Part shown: piece after piece, positions 7,895 to 24,286 of the stretch
How positions within the stretch are numbered: position 1 is the first letter of the stretch
Layout of the letters: each line of letters begins with the position of its first letter
Assembly: GCF_014217625.1 (NCBI RefSeq)
Contig: NZ_CP043641.1
Span: 3,162,001-3,226,000 of the forward strand
From: Leifsonia shinshuensis
GTDB lineage: Bacteria; Actinomycetota; Actinomycetes; Actinomycetales; Microbacteriaceae
Reading direction: 5' to 3'
DNA: 64,000 nt
Made by a program: the position numbers and the translations under genes
Notes under the pieces: model-generated
What the model was told of the DNA's origin: nothing
The model's input: the letters and a program-made list of their open reading frames with translations, nothing else
The model's database searches: none

Positions 7895-8086
7895 ACGCAG
7901 TCAACGGAGGAGATCCGGCCCGAACCCCGGCCGATCTCCTCCGTTGACTGCGTTTCCCCGGCGCGCCGCGCCGCATCTCCTCCGTTCGCGACTGCGGGGC
8001 GAACGGAGGAGATCCCGGCCAACACGCCGCCGAAACGCAGTCAACGGCGGAGTTGGTGGGGTGGGGAGGGCGGGAGTCCTCCGTTA
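7895..8086. repeat. Family B composite palindromic array
   Basis: Three hairpins share the motif CAACGGAGGAGATC. Hairpin 1 (7895-7953) has a perfect 21-base stem; hairpin 2 (7975-8013) a perfect 15-base stem; an imperfect third (8035-8086) starts again with ACGCAGTCAACGG. The array fills the spacer between the convergent MMPL and ligase genes. It resembles REP/BIME-type elements and could act as a two-way transcript end. Confidence 0.85.
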
Positions 8087-18132: not shown

Positions 18133-18191
18133 ACATTCGTGCCGAATGTGCGTTATCGGCGCGCGATTCGAGACATTCGGGCCGAATGTCT
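18133..18191. repeat. Family C palindromes (two copies)
   Basis: ACATTCGTGCCGAATGT (18133-18149) and AGACATTCGGGCCGAATGTCT (18171-18191) are two related perfect palindromes 21 bases apart. The second abuts the methyltransferase stop codon. They may form a transcript end for the minus-strand gene or paired regulator sites. Confidence 0.7.
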
Positions 18192-18835
18192 CAGGGGCGT
18201 GTCGCGTGGATGCGCTCGACGGCACCGGAGCGGAGGCGCTCGTGCTCGACGATCACCAGGCCGGCGGCCTCCACCTCGGCCCGGTGCCGCCGGGTCAGGT
18301 GCTCGCCCTGGAAGGGGATGGTGAACCGCTCCAGGGTCCACTGCCCGGCGTACACGAGCGCTCGGTCGCTGCGCGTGTGGTCGACGAGCACGACCGAGCC
18401 GCCCGGCACGACGACGCGCGCCATCTCGGCGACGGCGACAGCCGGCCGCGGGATGGAGCAGAGCGCGAGCGCGCAGACGACCGTGTCGAAGGTCGCGTCC
18501 GCGAACGGCAGCGCTTCGGCGTCCCCCTCCCGCAACTCGGCGGCGATCCCCTGCTCGGCGGCGCGCGCCCGGGCGATCGCCAGCATCTCGGGACTCAGGT
18601 CGATGCCGGTCAGCTCGATCCCCGCCGGATAGTACGGGAGGTCGCGTCCGGTCCCGACCGCGACCTCCAGCACCCGCCCACTCGCCCGCGCGCCGACCCA
18701 CTCGCGGCTGCCGGCGAGCATGGTCTGCTCGGCCCTGCCGACCTTGCGGTCGTACGTCGCGGCCTGCTTGCGCCAGGAGCGGAGCTGGCGCTGGGTCTCC
18801 TTGGAGGGGACGGGGGTGGAGTGCGCGTCGGTCAT
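18191..18835 (-). CDS. Class I SAM-dependent methyltransferase
   Basis: 214 residues. SAM-binding motif I is VLEVAVGTGRDLPYYP (55-70). The acidic end of strand 2 is GIDLSPEML, and motif II-like DTVVCALALCSIP follows. The sequence resembles UbiE/Methyltransf_11 proteins acting on small molecules or lipids. The C-terminal part (QWTLERFTIPFQGEHLTRRH) is typical of actinobacterial phosphatidylethanolamine-methylase-like members, but the substrate is unknown. It stands alone, divergent from the secreted peptide operon. Confidence 0.85.
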   Translation of the reverse strand: MTDAHSTPVPSKETQRQLRSWRKQAATYDRKVGRAEQTMLAGSREWVGARASGRVLEVAVGTGRDLPYYPAGIELTGIDLSPEMLAIARARAAEQGIAAELREGDAEALPFADATFDTVVCALALCSIPRPAVAVAEMARVVVPGGSVVLVDHTRSDRALVYAGQWTLERFTIPFQGEHLTRRHRAEVEAAGLVIVEHERLRSGAVERIHATRP

Positions 18836-18881
18836 GCGGTCATTGTGGCGGAGCCCCGGCCTCAGCGCACTGAAATGCAAG

Positions 18882-18887
18882 TAAAAT
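18882..18887 (+). promoter_or_regulatory. Possible -10 element of the secreted-peptide operon
   Basis: TAAAAT in a locally A-rich stretch, 52 bases upstream of the peptide start. No good -35 is visible at 16-18 bases, so the call is weak. Confidence 0.25.
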
Positions 18888-18939
18888 GGAAGATGCTAGG
18901 TTCTACGTGGTGGGAAGTCAACCACAAAAGGAGAACCAC

Positions 18940-19224
18940 ATGTCCATTCGCAAGTTCCTCGCAGGGAGTGCGGTCGCCGCCGCGCTAGTGACCGGTGTTG
19001 GCATCGACACGGCACAGGCTCCGCAAGCGTCTGCCGTCGAGTGCGTACAGAGCGTCACTATTTGGCAGGCGTACAACAAGTGCGCCGGTGTCCCGGCGCG
19101 CCACTGGGATGCCATCAAGAACTCGGCCTCCAAGTACGGCAACTGGGCCTCCGCTGGTCAGTGGTCCAAGCAGACGTCGTGCTGGGCCAACGTCGTCTCC
19201 TACGGCTACTCCCTGAAGGCGTAG
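18940..19224 (+). CDS. Secreted small peptide precursor, bacteriocin-like
   Basis: 94 residues with AAAAGGAGA before the ATG. Residues 1-32 are a Sec signal: MSIRK, a hydrophobic stretch, then APQASA-VEC with a signal peptidase site after Ala32. The mature part is about 62 residues with three cysteines (35, 48, 81) and five Trp and five Tyr, including KYGNWASAGQWSKQTSCWAN and a Tyr-rich end. Leader and mature lengths match lactococcin 972-type bacteriocins (25 + 66), and an ABC system follows, but the sequence lacks that family's motifs. It starts a five-gene coupled operon, and the following gene begins three bases after its stop. The base composition of the leader and gene is near 50-55 percent G+C, well below the surroundings. 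Confidence 0.75.
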   Translation: MSIRKFLAGSAVAAALVTGVGIDTAQAPQASAVECVQSVTIWQAYNKCAGVPARHWDAIKNSASKYGNWASAGQWSKQTSCWANVVSYGYSLKA

Positions 19225-19227
19225 GCG

Positions 19228-19830
19228 GTGCGGGCACGAGCAGCCGGCGGGACAATCGCCGTCATCGTCGCAGTGGCTTGCCTCGTCGGCTGCTCGGCGC
19301 CCGACTCGCCTGAGGAGGTCGTCGAATCGCTTTCGCTGACGGGGCCGTGGGCATCGGATTTCCAGGTCGCCTACGCGAACGCGAAGAGTGACTACGAACG
19401 CGGCGTGCTCGAAGACGGCGAGGTCACGTCGTCGGAATACGAGGAGTCCAAGAACCATCTGCGCTCGTGTGTCGGTGACGCTGGCTACGCCATCACGTGG
19501 GACGAGCGGGGTGGATTCGAACTCGGTTCGAAGAACGGCACATATCCCGACGACTTCTTCGAGCGTTCCGACCCCGTACTTCAGGAGTGCGAGTCGAAGT
19601 GGGCCGGATCGATCCTCTACCTTTACGAGCAGGCTCGACGGAATCCGAAGAAGACGGACGAGAGCACGCTACAAGTGACGTGCCTCAGGGACGCGGGCTT
19701 GGTCGACGGGACGTACACGAAGGACCAGTGGCGGCGGGACAACGAGAAGGACACCTTCCCATTCGACGCCCGCTCTGATGCCGCAATGAGGTGCGACCTC
19801 GACCCCCTCGGCCTCTGGTATTCGGGATGA
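19228..19830 (+). CDS. Lipoprotein of the peptide operon (possible immunity or partner protein)
   Basis: 200 residues from a GTG three bases after the peptide stop. The lipobox LVGC puts the lipidated Cys at 22. The exported part is acidic, has four further cysteines (in RSCVGDAG, LQECESK, VTCLRDAG and MRCDL) and no enzyme motif. Its stop overlaps the adaptor start (ATGA). A surface lipoprotein between a secreted peptide and its ABC proteins suits self-protection, peptide folding or a structural partner role; none is demonstrated. The family is not recognised. Confidence 0.75.
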   Translation: MRARAAGGTIAVIVAVACLVGCSAPDSPEEVVESLSLTGPWASDFQVAYANAKSDYERGVLEDGEVTSSEYEESKNHLRSCVGDAGYAITWDERGGFELGSKNGTYPDDFFERSDPVLQECESKWAGSILYLYEQARRNPKKTDESTLQVTCLRDAGLVDGTYTKDQWRRDNEKDTFPFDARSDAAMRCDLDPLGLWYSG

Positions 19831-20882
19831 GCAAGCTCCGCCCGCGAATGCACTGGCCGCTTGTGGGCGTCGCAGCGATCGTGGCGGCGAGCGTCGCCGG
19901 CTCGCTCGTTGCGCTTTCGGTGCCCGTCCCCGCCCCGAGCGCCCTGTCGACGCCGCATCCCCAAACGATCGTTCCGGTAACTCAGCGCGCTTTCGCTGAC
20001 GATCGGCAGGCTCAGCTCCAGGTGAGTACGGGTCCGGTCCGGGCGGTCGTCTCACCTCGTCTGGGCCGGCTCACTTCGCTCACCTGTCGGAGCGGTGGAC
20101 GGTTGGCGTCCGGCACCGCTTTCGCGAGCATCGACGGCGACCGGATCGTCGCGCTGGCGACCGCGGTCCCGCTCTGGCGCGAGCTCCGGTCCGGAGACCG
20201 CGGGGATGACGTGCGTGCCTTGCAGGAGGAGCTTGCGCGACTCGGCCAGCACATCCAGCCTGACGGTGTGGTCGGTCGGGGAACAATCCGAGCCGCGGCG
20301 GCGGTGCGTGAGACGGAGGCGGCCCGGGCCAAGACGCCAGAGACCGTCGACCCGGCAGATTTCGCCTGGATTCCGGAGCCGGAGGTCAGAGTCGGCGAAT
20401 GCGCGGGCATCGTCGGCGCACCCGTCGCGGAGGGTGACGTGCTCATCGGGCTGCCGGTCGCAGTCGTGGCCGCGCGGCTGACGACGCTCCCAGCGCCGGC
20501 GACGCCCGGGGCACGAGTCGTCCGGGTCGGCGCGGTGGAGATCTCCGTCGACTCCGAAGGAGCGGTGACGGACTCCGAAGGGCTCGCCAGGATCGGGGCG
20601 ACGGCTGAGTTTCTGTCGGCGAGCGCCGGGGCGAGCGAGGACACCGCGATCCCCGTGCAGTGGTCCCTGGAGAGGCCGATGAATGCTCTCGTCGTCCCAC
20701 CGTCTGCCTTATGGGATGTCAAAGACGGATCAGCATGCGTGATGCCCGCGGAGAAGTCGGCTCGTCCGCTCTTGGTTGATGTGCTCGGGTCCGAACTCGG
20801 CCAGTCGTTCGTGCGGCCATCGGAGGAACGTTCCGCCACGGCTGTGCGATCGTCGCCACCGAAGAGCCGCGCGTGCCGGTGA
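19827..20882 (+). CDS. Membrane-fusion (MacA/HlyD-like) adaptor with a peptidoglycan-binding domain
   Basis: 351 residues. One N-terminal helix (12-31) anchors it in the membrane. A beta-barrel/lipoyl-like region (about 60-115, with VRAVVSPRLGRLTSL and GTAFASIDG) is followed by a PG_binding_1 domain at about 117-160 (LWRELRSGDRGDDVRALQEE and GVVGRGTIRAAAAV). A barrel-rich C-terminal part carries PVAEGDVLIGLPVAVV. Actinobacteria have no outer membrane, so the peptidoglycan-binding domain probably ties the exporter to the wall. It is coupled to both neighbours by overlapping codons. Confidence 0.8.
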   Translation: MSKLRPRMHWPLVGVAAIVAASVAGSLVALSVPVPAPSALSTPHPQTIVPVTQRAFADDRQAQLQVSTGPVRAVVSPRLGRLTSLTCRSGGRLASGTAFASIDGDRIVALATAVPLWRELRSGDRGDDVRALQEELARLGQHIQPDGVVGRGTIRAAAAVRETEAARAKTPETVDPADFAWIPEPEVRVGECAGIVGAPVAEGDVLIGLPVAVVAARLTTLPAPATPGARVVRVGAVEISVDSEGAVTDSEGLARIGATAEFLSASAGASEDTAIPVQWSLERPMNALVVPPSALWDVKDGSACVMPAEKSARPLLVDVLGSELGQSFVRPSEERSATAVRSSPPKSRACR

Positions 20883-21499
20883 CGTTCGACGCGGTCTCGC
20901 ACGCGTTCACTCCCGGGCATCCGCTGTTCCGGCCGATAAGCCACACCTTCGTCGCGGGGACGATCACCGGGGTGGTCGGTCCGAGCGGCTGCGGTAAGTC
21001 GACCCTGCTCGCGATCGCCGCCGGGATGATCCGTCCGACCGTTGGAAGGGTGAACCGCTCGGAAGGTCGCTGCGTCTGGGTGTTCCAGAACCCGCACGGG
21101 GTCGCTCGGCGTTCCGCGCAGGATCACGTGAGCATTCCGCTTCTCGCCGCGGGCCGCGGTCGTGGTGATGCCGACCGGGAGGCGCGGCGGCTGCTGATGG
21201 AGTTCGGGCTTGTCGATCGCGCGCGTATGCCGTTCTCGGCGCTCTCCGGGGGCGAAGCGCAGCGGCTCATGCTGGCGCGAGCTGTCGCGGCCCGACCGCA
21301 CCTTCTTCTGGTTGATGAGCCGACGGCCCAGCTCGATCGTCCGATGGCGGCGCATGTGAATTCCGTGATCGCGGGCTTGGCGAGTGCTGGCGCCGCGGTG
21401 GTCATCGCCACTCACGACATCGACACGCGGCGTGCGTGCGACCAGGTCATCGAGCTCGAAAACCTCGGAACGGTGACACCCCTGGAGTGGCCGCGGTGA
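20873..21499 (+). CDS. ABC ATPase, MacB/LolD-like, of the peptide operon
   Basis: 208 residues. Walker A GPSGCGKST at 36-44, Q-loop Gln72 in VFQNPHG, signature LSGGEAQR at 124-131, Walker B LLLVDEP at 144-150 and H-loop ATHD. Its small size and lack of fused domains fit the MacB/LolD group, which includes the ATPases of lactococcin 972-type loci. The start is GTG at 20873, or GTG at 20879, which would overlap the adaptor stop exactly as GTGA. It energises the adjacent permease. Confidence 0.88.
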   Translation: MPVTFDAVSHAFTPGHPLFRPISHTFVAGTITGVVGPSGCGKSTLLAIAAGMIRPTVGRVNRSEGRCVWVFQNPHGVARRSAQDHVSIPLLAAGRGRGDADREARRLLMEFGLVDRARMPFSALSGGEAQRLMLARAVAARPHLLLVDEPTAQLDRPMAAHVNSVIAGLASAGAAVVIATHDIDTRRACDQVIELENLGTVTPLEWPR

Positions 21500-22560
21500 G
21501 GCTCGGGGAGGCCCTTCGTGAGGCCTGGCGCGATATCGCCACGGGCGCAGGCCGATCCGTGACGTTCACCCTGCTTTTCGCGGTGGTGGCCGGTGGGATC
21601 GTTCTCGCGGCGGGACTCTCGTCGGCGACAGCAGTGCGCGACGCGCGAGAGTTTGTCGCCTCGGGAGCCGCCATCTACGTGATGAAGGCCTCGGCCGGGA
21701 TCGACGGGCGTGCCTGCGACGCGATGAGCTCACTCGCGAACGTGGGGGCGTCGGGAGCCATCCGCGAACAGACCGAAGGCGTGTCATCGTCTCGTTTGCC
21801 CAGGACCCCGATCTCGCTGTTCGCGGTCTCCCGGGGATTCATGGCCCTGCTCCCGTTCGACGGCGAAGCGAACGGCGGCGGCTTGAGTCTGTCGAAGGAC
21901 GCGGCAACGACGCTGGGCGCCACGGCAGGTCAGGATCTCGAGACGACGCGTGGGATCACCCGTGTTGCCTCCGTCTTCGACTATCCGGACGATGGCCGCG
22001 ACCCGCTCCTGTCGTTCGCCGCGACCGAAGTGGTCGCTGGCGAGGCGGCGTTCGACCAATGCTGGGCGATGATCTGGCCTCACGATGAGAACGCGGTCGC
22101 CGCTCTCGGGCGCGCGGTGCTGTCCGGGCGAGGTGACAGGGCCGATCGTCCAGTCCTTGTACAGCTCAACCAGACGAACGGCTCGCGGTTCGTCGCGTCG
22201 TCGACGTTCAACCGTTCGGTGGCCGGGATCCTCGTCGTCGCAGCGGGTGCAGTCCTCGGAGCAGCATTCGTCCTGCGGCGCCGCCTGGCACTCGCGTCAG
22301 ATCGTCATGTGGGGGTGAGCCGACTCGCGCAGGTCGTTTCGCAGTCCGCCCAAGTCCTTCTATGGGCCGCTGTCGGCTCGCTGGTCGCGATGGCAGCCGT
22401 GATCGTCGCTCTGCGGCTGGCGGACGAGGATCGGATTCCTATCATCCAGCAGAGCCTGACCCTCGCCTTGGCGGGAGGGGGAGCCGCCGTCGCGTCGTGC
22501 GCGGTCGCCGTGTGCATCGTTCGCGACGCGGCGTTGTTCCGCTACTTCAAACAACGCTGA
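21496..22560 (+). CDS. MacB/FtsX-like ABC permease of the peptide operon
   Basis: 354 residues from GTG overlapping the ATPase stop. Helix 1 (about 20-42) is followed by an external domain of about 190 residues, then three helices near the C-terminus (about 237-257, 275-305 and 318-345). This 1 + 3 helix layout with a large external domain is that of MacB, LolC and FtsX, which move or signal through a periplasmic domain rather than a channel. With the adaptor and ATPase it makes a tripartite system acting on the secreted peptide or on envelope stress. It is the last gene; the convergent oxidoreductase gene ends five bases later. Confidence 0.78.
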   Translation: MRLGEALREAWRDIATGAGRSVTFTLLFAVVAGGIVLAAGLSSATAVRDAREFVASGAAIYVMKASAGIDGRACDAMSSLANVGASGAIREQTEGVSSSRLPRTPISLFAVSRGFMALLPFDGEANGGGLSLSKDAATTLGATAGQDLETTRGITRVASVFDYPDDGRDPLLSFAATEVVAGEAAFDQCWAMIWPHDENAVAALGRAVLSGRGDRADRPVLVQLNQTNGSRFVASSTFNRSVAGILVVAAGAVLGAAFVLRRRLALASDRHVGVSRLAQVVSQSAQVLLWAAVGSLVAMAAVIVALRLADEDRIPIIQQSLTLALAGGGAAVASCAVAVCIVRDAALFRYFKQR

Positions 22561-22565
22561 CTCCC

Positions 22566-24113
22566 TCACCCCACCCGCACCAACGTCGACTGCCACCCCG
22601 TGGACCCGTTCGGTGCGATCGGCGTGCGCTTCTCCTCCTGCAGCCGTCCCGCCCGGTCGGTCGCCCGCACGGCGAGCGTGTGCGAGCCGGTCGTGGCGTT
22701 CCAGTCGAGGGACCACTGCACCCAGGTGTCGGCGTTGACCGCGACGGCCAGGGTCGCCTCCTGCCAGGGGCCGCCGTCGATCTGGACCTCCACCTTCTGG
22801 ATGCCGACCGTCTGCGCCCACGCGACGCCCGCGATCTTCGTCGGACCCGCCGGGAGCGACCGGTCGATGCGCGGGGTGTCGATGCGGCTGGAGAGCTTGA
22901 TCGGGGCCTTCTCGCTGTAGCCGCGGGGCGTCCAGTAGGCCTGGTCGGCCGCGAACGTCGTGACCTTCAGCTCGGTGAGCCACTTGGTCGCCGAGACGTA
23001 GCCGTAGAGGCCGGGGACGACCATCCGCACCGGGAAGCCGTGCTCCAGCGGCAGCGGCTCGCCGTTCATCCCGACCGCGAGGATGGCGTCCCGGCCCGGA
23101 TCGGTGAGCGCCGTGAGCGGCGTGCTCGCGGTGAAGCCGTCGACGCTGCGCGACAGGACCATGTCGGCGCCGTGCCGCGGGCGGGCGCGGGCGAGCACGT
23201 CGCGCACCGGCACGCCGAGCCAGCGGGCGTTGCCGACGAGGTTGCCGCCGACCTGGTTGGAGACGCAGGTGAGCGTGATCGCGTACTCGCGGAGGCCCAT
23301 CGCGAGGAGATCCTTGAACGTCAGCTGGACGCGGCTCTCCACCATTCCGTCCACAGTGAGCAGCCAGCCGGACGGGTCGACGGACGGGACGGTCAGCGCG
23401 GTGTCCACCCGGTAGAAGTCCGCGTTGGGTGTGAACAACGGGGAGAGGTCCTTCACGTGGAGGTCTGCGCCGGAGGGCACCTCGACGCGGTTCGCGGGCG
23501 CGGGCAGGCGCAGCGCCGAGCGGACGGCCGCGATCGAGGAGGTCGCCGCCGAGCCGAGCCGGGAGCCGACGCCCGCCACCACTGCGAGGGCGGCGCCCGC
23601 GCCGGTGAGCAGCAGGAACCGGCGGCGGTCGACGCCGGAGGACGGGTCGTCGACCGCCTCCCGCCACGGCCGCAGCGCTTCGATGAGGAGACGCAGCGCC
23701 GCAGCGCCCGCGAGCGCTCCGACCGCGGAGGGCAGGACGGCGAGTGGGCTCGCGTCGGCGCGGGTCACGGTGGCCGCGACGGCCAGCGCCCCGGCCACGA
23801 CGAACAGTACGACGCCCACCCAGCGGCGCCAGAGCTCCAGGATCCCGGCGACCGCCGCGGCCACGAACACCGCGGCCCCGAGCGAGGACAGCAGGAACAG
23901 CTTGTCGTTCGACCCGAACAGCTCGATCGCGAGCTCCTTCGCCCAGCGCGGCACGATATCGATCACGAACGATCCGACCGCGATCAGCGGGTCGGCCTCC
24001 CGGGCGGCGAGGAGCGCGACCACCTCGGCGACGGCGACGAAGAGGCCGCCGCTGACCGCGCCCGCGAGCGCGGCCCAGCCCCAGGCGGCGAGGTGTCTTC
24101 TGCGGATGCTCAC
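22566..24113 (-). CDS. Membrane-anchored molybdopterin-dependent oxidoreductase (sulfite oxidase family)
   Basis: 515 residues. About five hydrophobic helices (12-145) are followed by [14 protein letters not shown] (162-175), a twin-arginine-like internal signal. The sulfite-oxidase-type Moco domain has Cys283 ([12 protein letters not shown]) as the molybdenum ligand, plus [20 protein letters not shown] and YWTPRGY. A C-terminal Ig-like dimerisation domain ends with Trp-rich repeats. It probably reduces or oxidises small compounds outside the cell. I chose the GTG at 24113, at [12 protein letters not shown], because upstream sequence is non-coding in character. It is divergent from the fasciclin gene, a pairing common in actinobacteria. 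Confidence 0.85.
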
Positions 24114-24148
24114 GGGAGCTGTTCGGCGCGGACACCGTCTCCGGATTG

Positions 24149-24211
24149 GCGGGGACCGATTCGCCGCCGATTCCAATCCGATTCGGCCGCGGGGCCGAAC
24201 CCCCTGACGAC
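24149..24211. promoter_or_regulatory. Divergent spacer with repeated CCGATTC motifs
   Basis: Three CGATTC-type motifs occur in 50 bases (ACCGATTCGCC, GCCGATTCC, TCCGATTCGG). CAATCC followed by 15 bases and CCGAACC resembles the SigK-type promoter form CCATCC/CCGAATC known for mycobacterial fasciclin genes. The match is imperfect and the spacer short. Confidence 0.25.
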
Positions 24212-24286
24212 GGACGCCGACGCGGCCTCCCGATCTGCACCGGTTCGAAGCCCCGTCTCGAAGCACCCATTCGAAGGAGAAGAAAC

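What the first reader, a model, noticed from the sequence alone, without database searches (positions are those of the whole stretch)
18940..22560. Compact five-gene secreted-peptide operon, possibly an undescribed bacteriocin or envelope-acting peptide system
Seen: a 94-residue precursor with a Sec signal, then at 3 bases or with overlapping codons a lipoprotein, a membrane-fusion adaptor with a peptidoglycan-binding domain, an ABC ATPase and a MacB-like permease. The leader and peptide gene have clearly lower G+C than the flanks. Known: lactococcin 972-type loci pair a small secreted peptide with an ABC system, and MacAB systems act on secreted proteins and peptides. Inference: the peptide is the effector, the lipoprotein gives protection or partnership, and the ABC complex exports, senses or removes it. 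The peptide itself shows no family motif I know.
Basis: partly seen in the sequence, partly recalled or inferred. Interest (0 to 1): 0.85.

Follow-up and report, generated by a model that had tools for sequence, protein, structure and literature searches.

The report
Secreted peptide with self-protection operon
An actinobacterium related to Leifsonia carries a five-gene operon that most likely makes a small secreted antibacterial peptide together with a lipoprotein and a membrane pump that protect the producer; sister loci hold recognised lactococcin-972-type bacteriocins in the very same slot.

Summary
The five genes are real, collinear and tightly packed (18940-22560). The peptide matches no Pfam or NCBIfam family above cut-off. 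In all 12 sites found through the peptide, relatives of the lipoprotein, adaptor, ATPase and permease follow in order (one site decayed). Following the lipoprotein was decisive: across Microbacteriaceae the same quartet often sits behind a genuine lactococcin-972 peptide (28 of 53 PF09683 hits are directly followed by the lipoprotein gene), otherwise mostly behind other small secreted peptides. The window's genome has three such loci, one PF09683-type. Most PF09683 peptides checked without the lipoprotein have the classical long permease plus ATPase instead. So this is a lactococcin-972-type locus with a different, NisI/NisFEG-like module and a divergent or replaced peptide. Sequence homology of the window peptide to lactococcin 972 was tested and not shown; structure prediction failed. 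Tandem peptide-lipoprotein pairs, pairs lacking adjacent ABC genes, and shortened peptides beside full-length lipoprotein and ABC genes fit effector plus immunity. Toxicity, target and immunity are inferred. New variant of a known kind.

The parts
18881..18939 (+). A+T-rich leader with ribosome site; an upstream block (about 18873-18902) is conserved in two relatives
   Evidence: sequence; (G+C 0.458); alignment with L008 and L009; promoter role inferred
18940..19224 (+). 94-aa secreted peptide precursor; signal about 18940-19035, predicted mature 62 aa at 19036-19221 (6.86 kDa, pI 9.2, 3 Cys, 9 aromatic residues W/Y/F); cleavage site inferred
19228..19830 (+). lipoprotein, lipobox LVGC at residues 19-22, largely conserved outside cysteines C81, C121, C152, C189 and C-terminal DPLGL; candidate immunity protein
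19827..20882 (+). membrane-anchored adaptor-like protein with weak peptidoglycan-binding match
20873..21499 (+). ABC ATPase (208 aa)
21496..22560 (+). MacB-like permease (354 aa), large loop between segments 1 and 2 with conserved C74 and C189

Best explanation
The operon makes a Sec-secreted, basic, aromatic-rich 62-residue bacteriocin-like peptide and a four-gene self-protection module. The peptide leaves by the general secretory route and is cut after its AxA site (inferred). Outside the cell it acts on the envelope of related actinobacteria, most likely on a wall-synthesis target such as lipid II, as lactococcin 972 does (inferred from the shared locus type). The lipoprotein, anchored on the outer face of the producer's membrane, binds or masks the peptide or its target, and the ATPase/permease pair with its wall-binding adaptor clears peptide from the membrane: division of labour as in NisI plus NisFEG. 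Shown: operon structure, conservation, purifying selection, PF09683 and other peptides in front of the same module, regular peptide-lipoprotein pairing. Inferred: secretion and cleavage, toxicity, target, immunity.
For: The peptide is followed by all four partners in 12 of 12 sites found through it. In 398 Microbacteriaceae genomes 28 of 53 PF09683 hits lie within 600 bases upstream of a lipoprotein hit, and 28 of 66 lipoprotein hits with E<=1e-15 have one. Six of 10 slot peptides that I chose to scan pass the PF09683 cut-off. Peptide-lipoprotein pairs repeat in tandem before one ABC unit (L020 four pairs; L019 two peptides, three lipoproteins). Peptide plus lipoprotein without adjacent ABC genes at 7 of 52 lipoprotein sites read (L101, L102, L103, L108, L116, L124, L130). 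Shortened peptide genes with full-length lipoprotein and ABC ORFs at two sites of one genome (L012, L013), the pattern described for pneumococcal scb strains that lack the functional peptide (PMC11796350, passages). Peptide type is clustered on permease and lipoprotein trees: 8 changes, shuffled means 23.6 and 23.8, 0 of 200 as low. NisI/NisFEG as the model: PMC8538875, passages.
Against: Homology of the window peptide to lactococcin 972 not shown: no Pfam hit; profile-profile probability 2.35%, score 14.5, reached by 7 of 200 column-shuffled controls; HMM scores weak in both directions (window 6.2 bits, 1.75% of shuffles as high). The peptide is under purifying selection, not the fast change expected of an arms race. 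Within the L020 array peptide and lipoprotein identities do not correlate (r -0.08, six comparisons). One quartet (L060) has no peptide found and one ABC trio (L208) no lipoprotein. Four lipoprotein sites have neither peptide nor ABC genes found (L059, L063, L115, L129). The tree clustering may be mere common descent. No toxicity data.
Confidence: 0.6

Rival explanations
1. The peptide is a non-toxic envelope peptide or wall-associated cofactor, and the lipoprotein/ABC complex places, recycles or uses it in the producer's own envelope (an envelope-maintenance system).
For: Purifying selection of the strength seen in the ATPase; nearly invariant mature part in close relatives; adaptor with a weak wall-binding match.
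Against: PF09683 bacteriocin-type peptides occupy the same slot; patchy presence, peptide in 6 of 149 genomes searched, own included; tandem peptide-lipoprotein arrays.
Confidence: 0.15
2. The ABC/adaptor/lipoprotein complex is a dedicated secretion or maturation machine for the peptide rather than immunity.
For: Regular operon linkage; NCBIfam names the classical ATPase of such loci a putative bacteriocin exporter, TIGR03608.
Against: The peptide has its own Sec-type signal; peptide plus lipoprotein occur without adjacent ABC genes at 7 sites, though four of those genomes (G060, G193, G249, G430) have ABC genes elsewhere; lactococcin-972-like peptides are thought to leave by Sec (PMC11796350, passages).
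Confidence: 0.12
3. The peptide is a cell-cell signal sensed through the lipoprotein and ABC complex.
For: Small secreted conserved peptide next to a membrane complex.
Against: No regulator among the five genes or the two immediate neighbours, a methyltransferase and a molybdopterin oxidoreductase; bacteriocin-type peptides in the same slot.
Confidence: 0.07
4. The peptide ORF is a chance or unrelated ORF next to an ordinary ABC operon.
For: None found.
Against: dN/dS 0.13-0.20; 12 of 12 sites conserved; small secreted ORF upstream in 31 of 44 quartet loci by a blind rule against 12 of 243 other genes.
Confidence: 0.01

Closest known systems
Lactococcin 972-type bacteriocin loci (PF09683)
   Same: Small Sec-type secreted peptide first in an operon with ABC genes; PF09683 peptides occupy the same slot of orthologous loci, one of them in this very genome
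   Different: Window peptide has no PF09683 match, no GGxWxYG-like start and three cysteines; classical loci have one long permease (TIGR01654-like, about 660-710 codons) and an ATPase, here a lipoprotein, an adaptor and a 354-aa permease
NisI/NisFEG and SpaI/SpaFEG lantibiotic immunity
   Same: Lipoprotein plus ABC transporter beside a secreted peptide (works like)
   Different: No modification genes, Sec-type signal, added adaptor with wall-binding match, no detected sequence kinship of the lipoprotein to a solved structure
MacAB-type ABC systems
   Same: Adaptor-like protein, ATPase, permease with MacB-like topology
   Different: Permease matches MacB only at E=0.1; adaptor has no HlyD/MacA Pfam match
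Curtobacterium sp. APC 4022 Pep1 cluster (PMC10456417, passages)
   Same: Lactococcin-972-like core peptide with two ABC genes and two hypothetical genes, probably this architecture (inference)
   Different: Passages name no lipoprotein or adaptor; sequences not compared here

Membership tests
Lactococcin 972 bacteriocins (PF09683) | Match to PF09683 above its cut-off | tested here: not met
   window; 0 of 16 alignment members
Lactococcin 972 bacteriocins (PF09683) | Profile-level homology of mature peptides | tested here: inconclusive
   probability 2.35%, 7 of 200 shuffled controls as high; window 6.2 bits, 1.75% of shuffles as high
Lactococcin 972 bacteriocins (PF09683) | Sec-type signal peptide | tested here: met
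   hydrophobic core at residues 7-22; ASA before residue 33; hydropathy only, no signal predictor
Lactococcin 972 bacteriocins (PF09683) | Same genomic slot as PF09683 peptides in orthologous loci | tested here: met
Lactococcin 972 bacteriocins (PF09683) | Classical partner genes (TIGR01654 permease, TIGR03608 ATPase) | tested here: not met
   permease no hit, ATPase 101.2 bits for TIGR03608 against a cut-off of 254.85; contrast, where L137 scores 192.9 bits, also below cut-off, but as its best family
Lactococcin 972 bacteriocins (PF09683) | Beta-sandwich fold | not tested
Lactococcin 972 bacteriocins (PF09683) | Lipid II binding and growth inhibition | not testable with these tools
   needs bench work
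NisI/NisFEG-type immunity | Lipoprotein plus ABC transporter encoded beside the peptide | tested here: met
NisI/NisFEG-type immunity | Sequence kinship of the lipoprotein to NisI or SpaI | tested here: not met
   no NisI or SpaI chain among 11 matches up to E=10 (sequence profile only; that such chains are in the library was not checked)
MacAB systems | MacB permease and MacA/HlyD adaptor families | tested here: inconclusive

The most novel reading that the evidence does not exclude
The lipoprotein/adaptor/ATPase/permease quartet is a general-purpose immunity chassis of Microbacteriaceae (and of at least one further actinobacterial family) on which sequence-unrelated small secreted effectors are exchanged: PF09683 bacteriocins, the window type and several further types, arranged as polymorphic effector-lipoprotein cassettes with orphan immunity genes and parts that can lie apart in one genome. 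The window peptide would then be a new bacteriocin family with a new immunity lipoprotein family.
Probability: 0.35. Interest if true: 0.75.

Novelty: new variant of a known kind. Interest (0 to 1): 0.58.

Why it matters
One source says that experimental data on the presumed immunity and transport genes of lactococcin-972 loci are lacking (PMC11796350, passages), while another measured immunity of the whole lcn972-orf2-orf3 cluster (MIC 800-1600 against 12.5 units in the rows seen; PMC4055356, passages). A module that recurs with many different peptides, sometimes with the lipoprotein alone and sometimes as peptide-lipoprotein arrays, makes it testable which gene gives immunity and whether specificity lies in the lipoprotein. 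The lipoprotein and permease profiles are also a handle for finding secreted peptides that the tested family models miss.

Tried and rejected
Transglycosylase link: UniRef's truncated label on P0018 suggested it; no Pfam or NCBIfam match for P0018. Lactococcin-972 label on P0121: not backed by Pfam or NCBIfam. Rodlin (NF041022, E 0.0068, 16.4 of 75 bits, residues 3-80): far below its cut-off, dropped. Anti-phage defence: in PADLOC only the ATPase matches, seven families, best mad3 2.9e-24, read as generic ATPase matches. Plasmid carriage: no tblastn match of the lipoprotein in 72,556 plasmid records; the peptide was not searched there. Methyltransferase 18191-18880 as a sixth member: present beside the operon in L008 and L009, absent from Curtobacterium loci L016-L020; its GC3 is that of the host. 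Co-divergence of peptide and lipoprotein in one array: not seen. The peptide structure job was accepted once and failed; the lipoprotein job was never accepted. So the fold comparison that could settle kinship with lactococcin 972 was not made.
Full report
WHAT IS THERE. Five co-directional genes at 18940-22560, spaced by 3 bases or overlapping: a 94-aa peptide precursor, a 200-aa lipoprotein, a 351-aa adaptor-like protein, a 208-aa ABC ATPase and a 354-aa permease. Pfam recognises the ATPase and, below cut-off, a peptidoglycan-binding domain in the adaptor; peptide, lipoprotein and permease match nothing above cut-off in Pfam or NCBIfam. Neighbours are a methyltransferase (18191-18880, minus) and a molybdopterin oxidoreductase (22566-24266, minus). 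The genus is read from contigs: the 'same genus' genomes G010 and G026 have contigs of 747,651 and 992,552 bases, the lengths of the Leifsonia sp. TF02-11 and L. shinshuensis DP-L11 records.

THE PEPTIDE FAMILY. Of 149 genomes searched (own included) 6 hold the peptide. The protein search gave 20 relatives from the single sequence and 71 from alignment A2; the named ones are Leifsonia, Curtobacterium and Frondihabitans. In close relatives the mature part is nearly invariant while the signal part varies. dN/dS is 0.13, 0.20 and 0.13 for window-L008, window-L009 and L008-L009, against 0.15, 0.12 and 0.08 for the ATPase; dS is about 0.9-1.3 in the two window comparisons, so those values are rough.

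LINKAGE. Searches with the peptide led to 12 genomic sites (window, L008-L013, L016-L020; L014 and L015 are the same contigs as L008 and L009). In all 12, relatives of lipoprotein, adaptor, ATPase and permease follow in that order. One site (L011) is decayed: stop in the peptide, adaptor and ATPase in pieces. In genome G014 both copies have shortened peptide genes, one without a signal region and one with an internal deletion, but full-length lipoprotein, adaptor, ATPase and permease ORFs (L012, L013). Curtobacterium salicis L020 has four peptide-lipoprotein pairs in a row before one ABC unit; L019 has peptide-lipoprotein-lipoprotein-peptide-lipoprotein; L018 peptide-lipoprotein-lipoprotein. 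Peptide and lipoprotein identities within the L020 array do not correlate (r -0.08, six comparisons).

THE SAME MODULE WITH LACTOCOCCIN 972. The lipoprotein profile (A3) hits 65 of 398 Microbacteriaceae genomes, 32 of 85 genera, many hits weak. I read 52 lipoprotein sites: L051-L070 and L101-L132. Adaptor and permease relatives are adjacent in 39 of 52, with a clear ATPase in 38; 13 lack them. Permease ORFs are split in L055, L068 and L114. Upstream of the lipoprotein usually lies a small secreted peptide. Ten that I chose were scanned: six pass the PF09683 (Lactococcin_972) cut-off; L052, L065 and L067 match nothing, and L068 only DUF1036 below cut-off. Independently, PF09683 hits 44 of the same 398 genomes with 53 matches, and 0 of 14 control genomes; 28 of the 53 lie within 600 bases upstream of a lipoprotein hit on the same strand, and 28 of 66 lipoprotein hits with E<=1e-15 have one. 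The window's own genome has two more such loci: L051 with a PF09683 peptide and L052 with an unmatched secreted peptide. Of the 25 PF09683 hits not directly before a lipoprotein I fetched eight by themselves (L133-L140): seven are followed by an ORF of about 660-713 codons and an ORF whose end reads like an ABC ATPase by eye, L134 is not. In L137 these two match TIGR01654 (3.8e-12) and TIGR03608 (4.3e-57), both below the curated cut-offs, and L139's long ORF matches TIGR01654 at 1.5e-8; the other five were not scanned. So two architectures exist for lactococcin-972 peptides in one bacterial family, and the window has the second.

OTHER PEPTIDES IN THE SLOT. Besides PF09683 and window-type peptides the slot holds further small secreted ORFs (L052 with L173-L175; L119, L120, L131; L125 second site, L130, L132; L101, L102). 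The window-type profile scores L125a, L067 and L065 at 18-22 bits, above all shuffles, so these probably belong to its family. A blind rule (ribosome site, hydrophobic start, 80-135 aa, ending within 300 bases) finds such an ORF in 31 of 44 quartet loci and before 12 of 243 other genes in the same stretches; of the other 13, all but L060 have an HMM match or an ORF read by eye. I did not check one by one that each of the 31 is the true peptide.

PARTS APART. Peptide plus lipoprotein without adjacent ABC genes: L101, L102, L103 (window-type peptide), L108, L116, L124, L130, the last with a weak start. Lipoprotein without peptide or ABC found: L059, L063, L115, L129. L107 has only the end of a PF09683 peptide before its lipoprotein; in L110 a PF09683 peptide is divergently oriented. 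Exceptions complement each other in two genomes: G249 has a PF09683 peptide with lipoprotein at one place (L116) and a quartet without a peptide at another (L060); G193 has a peptide with lipoprotein (L124) and an ABC trio without lipoprotein (L208). G060 and G430 also have full quartets elsewhere (L066, L111). L209 and L210 have the ABC trio first, then peptide and lipoprotein.

RANGE. Class-wide the lipoprotein profile A5 hits 9 of 394 genomes and the permease profile A6 20 of 296, mostly weak. Full quartets outside Microbacteriaceae were read in three genomes of one other family (L173-L175) and a divergent one in L177. At E<=1e-10 the permease is in 32 of 249 Microbacteriaceae genomes. The insertion is accessory: in relative G008 the left flank (85.6% identity) ends at window 18196 and the right flank (83.6%) begins at 22566, 16 bases apart; in two further relatives (L239, L240) only the right flank is conserved in the stretches fetched.

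IS THE WINDOW PEPTIDE A LACTOCOCCIN 972? Tested and not shown. No PF09683 match in the window peptide or any of 16 family members. Mature profile against mature profile: probability 2.35%, score 14.5, reached by 7 of 200 column-shuffled controls. Single-sequence scores are slightly above most shuffles in both directions (window 6.2 bits, 1.75% of shuffles as high; best reverse 6.1 bits, 1.4%), but the top shuffles reach 16.5 and 13.6 bits. A distant common origin stays possible; replacement of the effector is equally possible. Structure prediction would decide but did not finish. A sequence-profile search of solved structures found nothing significant for peptide or lipoprotein.

CO-INHERITANCE. 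On quick trees of 50 permeases and 50 lipoproteins the peptide type needs 8 changes (least possible 6) against shuffled means of 23.6 and 23.8, 0 of 200 as low. On the permease tree 14 of 15 window-type loci fall in one group (support 90) that also holds L067 and L070; the decayed L011 lies among PF09683 loci. On the lipoprotein tree the window-type loci split into 11, 3 and L011. Peptide, lipoprotein and ABC genes thus largely travel together; this does not by itself show specificity, because common descent gives the same pattern.

MECHANISM. The peptide carries its own Sec-type signal, so the ABC unit is unlikely to be needed for export. Lactococcin-972-like peptides are thought to leave by Sec, bind lipid II and block septation, and data on their B and C genes are said to be lacking (PMC11796350, passages); for the founding plasmid the cluster with orf2-orf3 goes with immunity (PMC4055356, passages). 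A lipoprotein that binds the peptide plus an ABC pump that expels it is the nisin solution (NisI, NisFEG; PMC8538875, passages). I judge this division of labour the most likely here, with the adaptor holding the complex to the wall; all of this is inference.

WHAT IS IN PRINT. Searches of 'lactococcin 972' with Leifsonia (0 papers), Microbacteriaceae (1), Curtobacterium (1), Streptomyces (21, 15 listed), lipoprotein plus immunity (13), immunity (86, 30 listed) and a wider one. PMC10456417 (passages) reports in Curtobacterium sp. APC 4022 a lactococcin-972-like peptide with two ABC genes and two hypothetical genes, probably this architecture; PMC5719810 (passages) a Brevibacterium operon with two transmembrane proteins and an ATPase; PMC12823222 (passages) a lactococcin 972 family prediction in Frigoribacterium. 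In the listings and passages I saw there was no description of the lipoprotein or of the exchange of peptides; papers outside the library were not searched. PMC12328743 (passages and outline) is about an unrelated peptide class.

Noticed in passing
L051 (G000:C1:3864000-3878000) and L052 (G000:C1:2182000-2196000): The window's genome carries two more loci of the same four-gene module, one with a PF09683 peptide and one with an unmatched secreted peptide.
   Followed up: partly
window 18197-22565; L238 14721-14738: Relative G008 lacks the methyltransferase gene plus the operon between conserved flanks, an empty site.
   Followed up: partly
L020 7998-11990: Four tandem peptide-lipoprotein pairs before a single ABC unit in Curtobacterium salicis.
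   Followed up: yes
L012 9993-10178 and L013 8058-8183: Both peptide genes of one genome are shortened while lipoprotein and ABC genes are full length.
   Followed up: partly
L116 with L060 (G249); L124 with L208 (G193): In two genomes the missing parts of one locus (ABC genes, lipoprotein or peptide) are found at another place, as if the parts worked at a distance.
   Followed up: no
L209 and L210: Alternative gene order with the ABC trio first, then a secreted peptide and one or two lipoproteins.
   Followed up: no
window 18873-18902; L013 about 7970-8030: A+T-rich block before the peptide is conserved in two relatives and may be a promoter or operator; L013 has an ATATGAATTCATAT palindrome upstream.
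   Followed up: no
L119, L120, L131, L132, L125, L130: Other small secreted peptides in the slot that score low against both peptide profiles and may be further effector families.
   Followed up: partly
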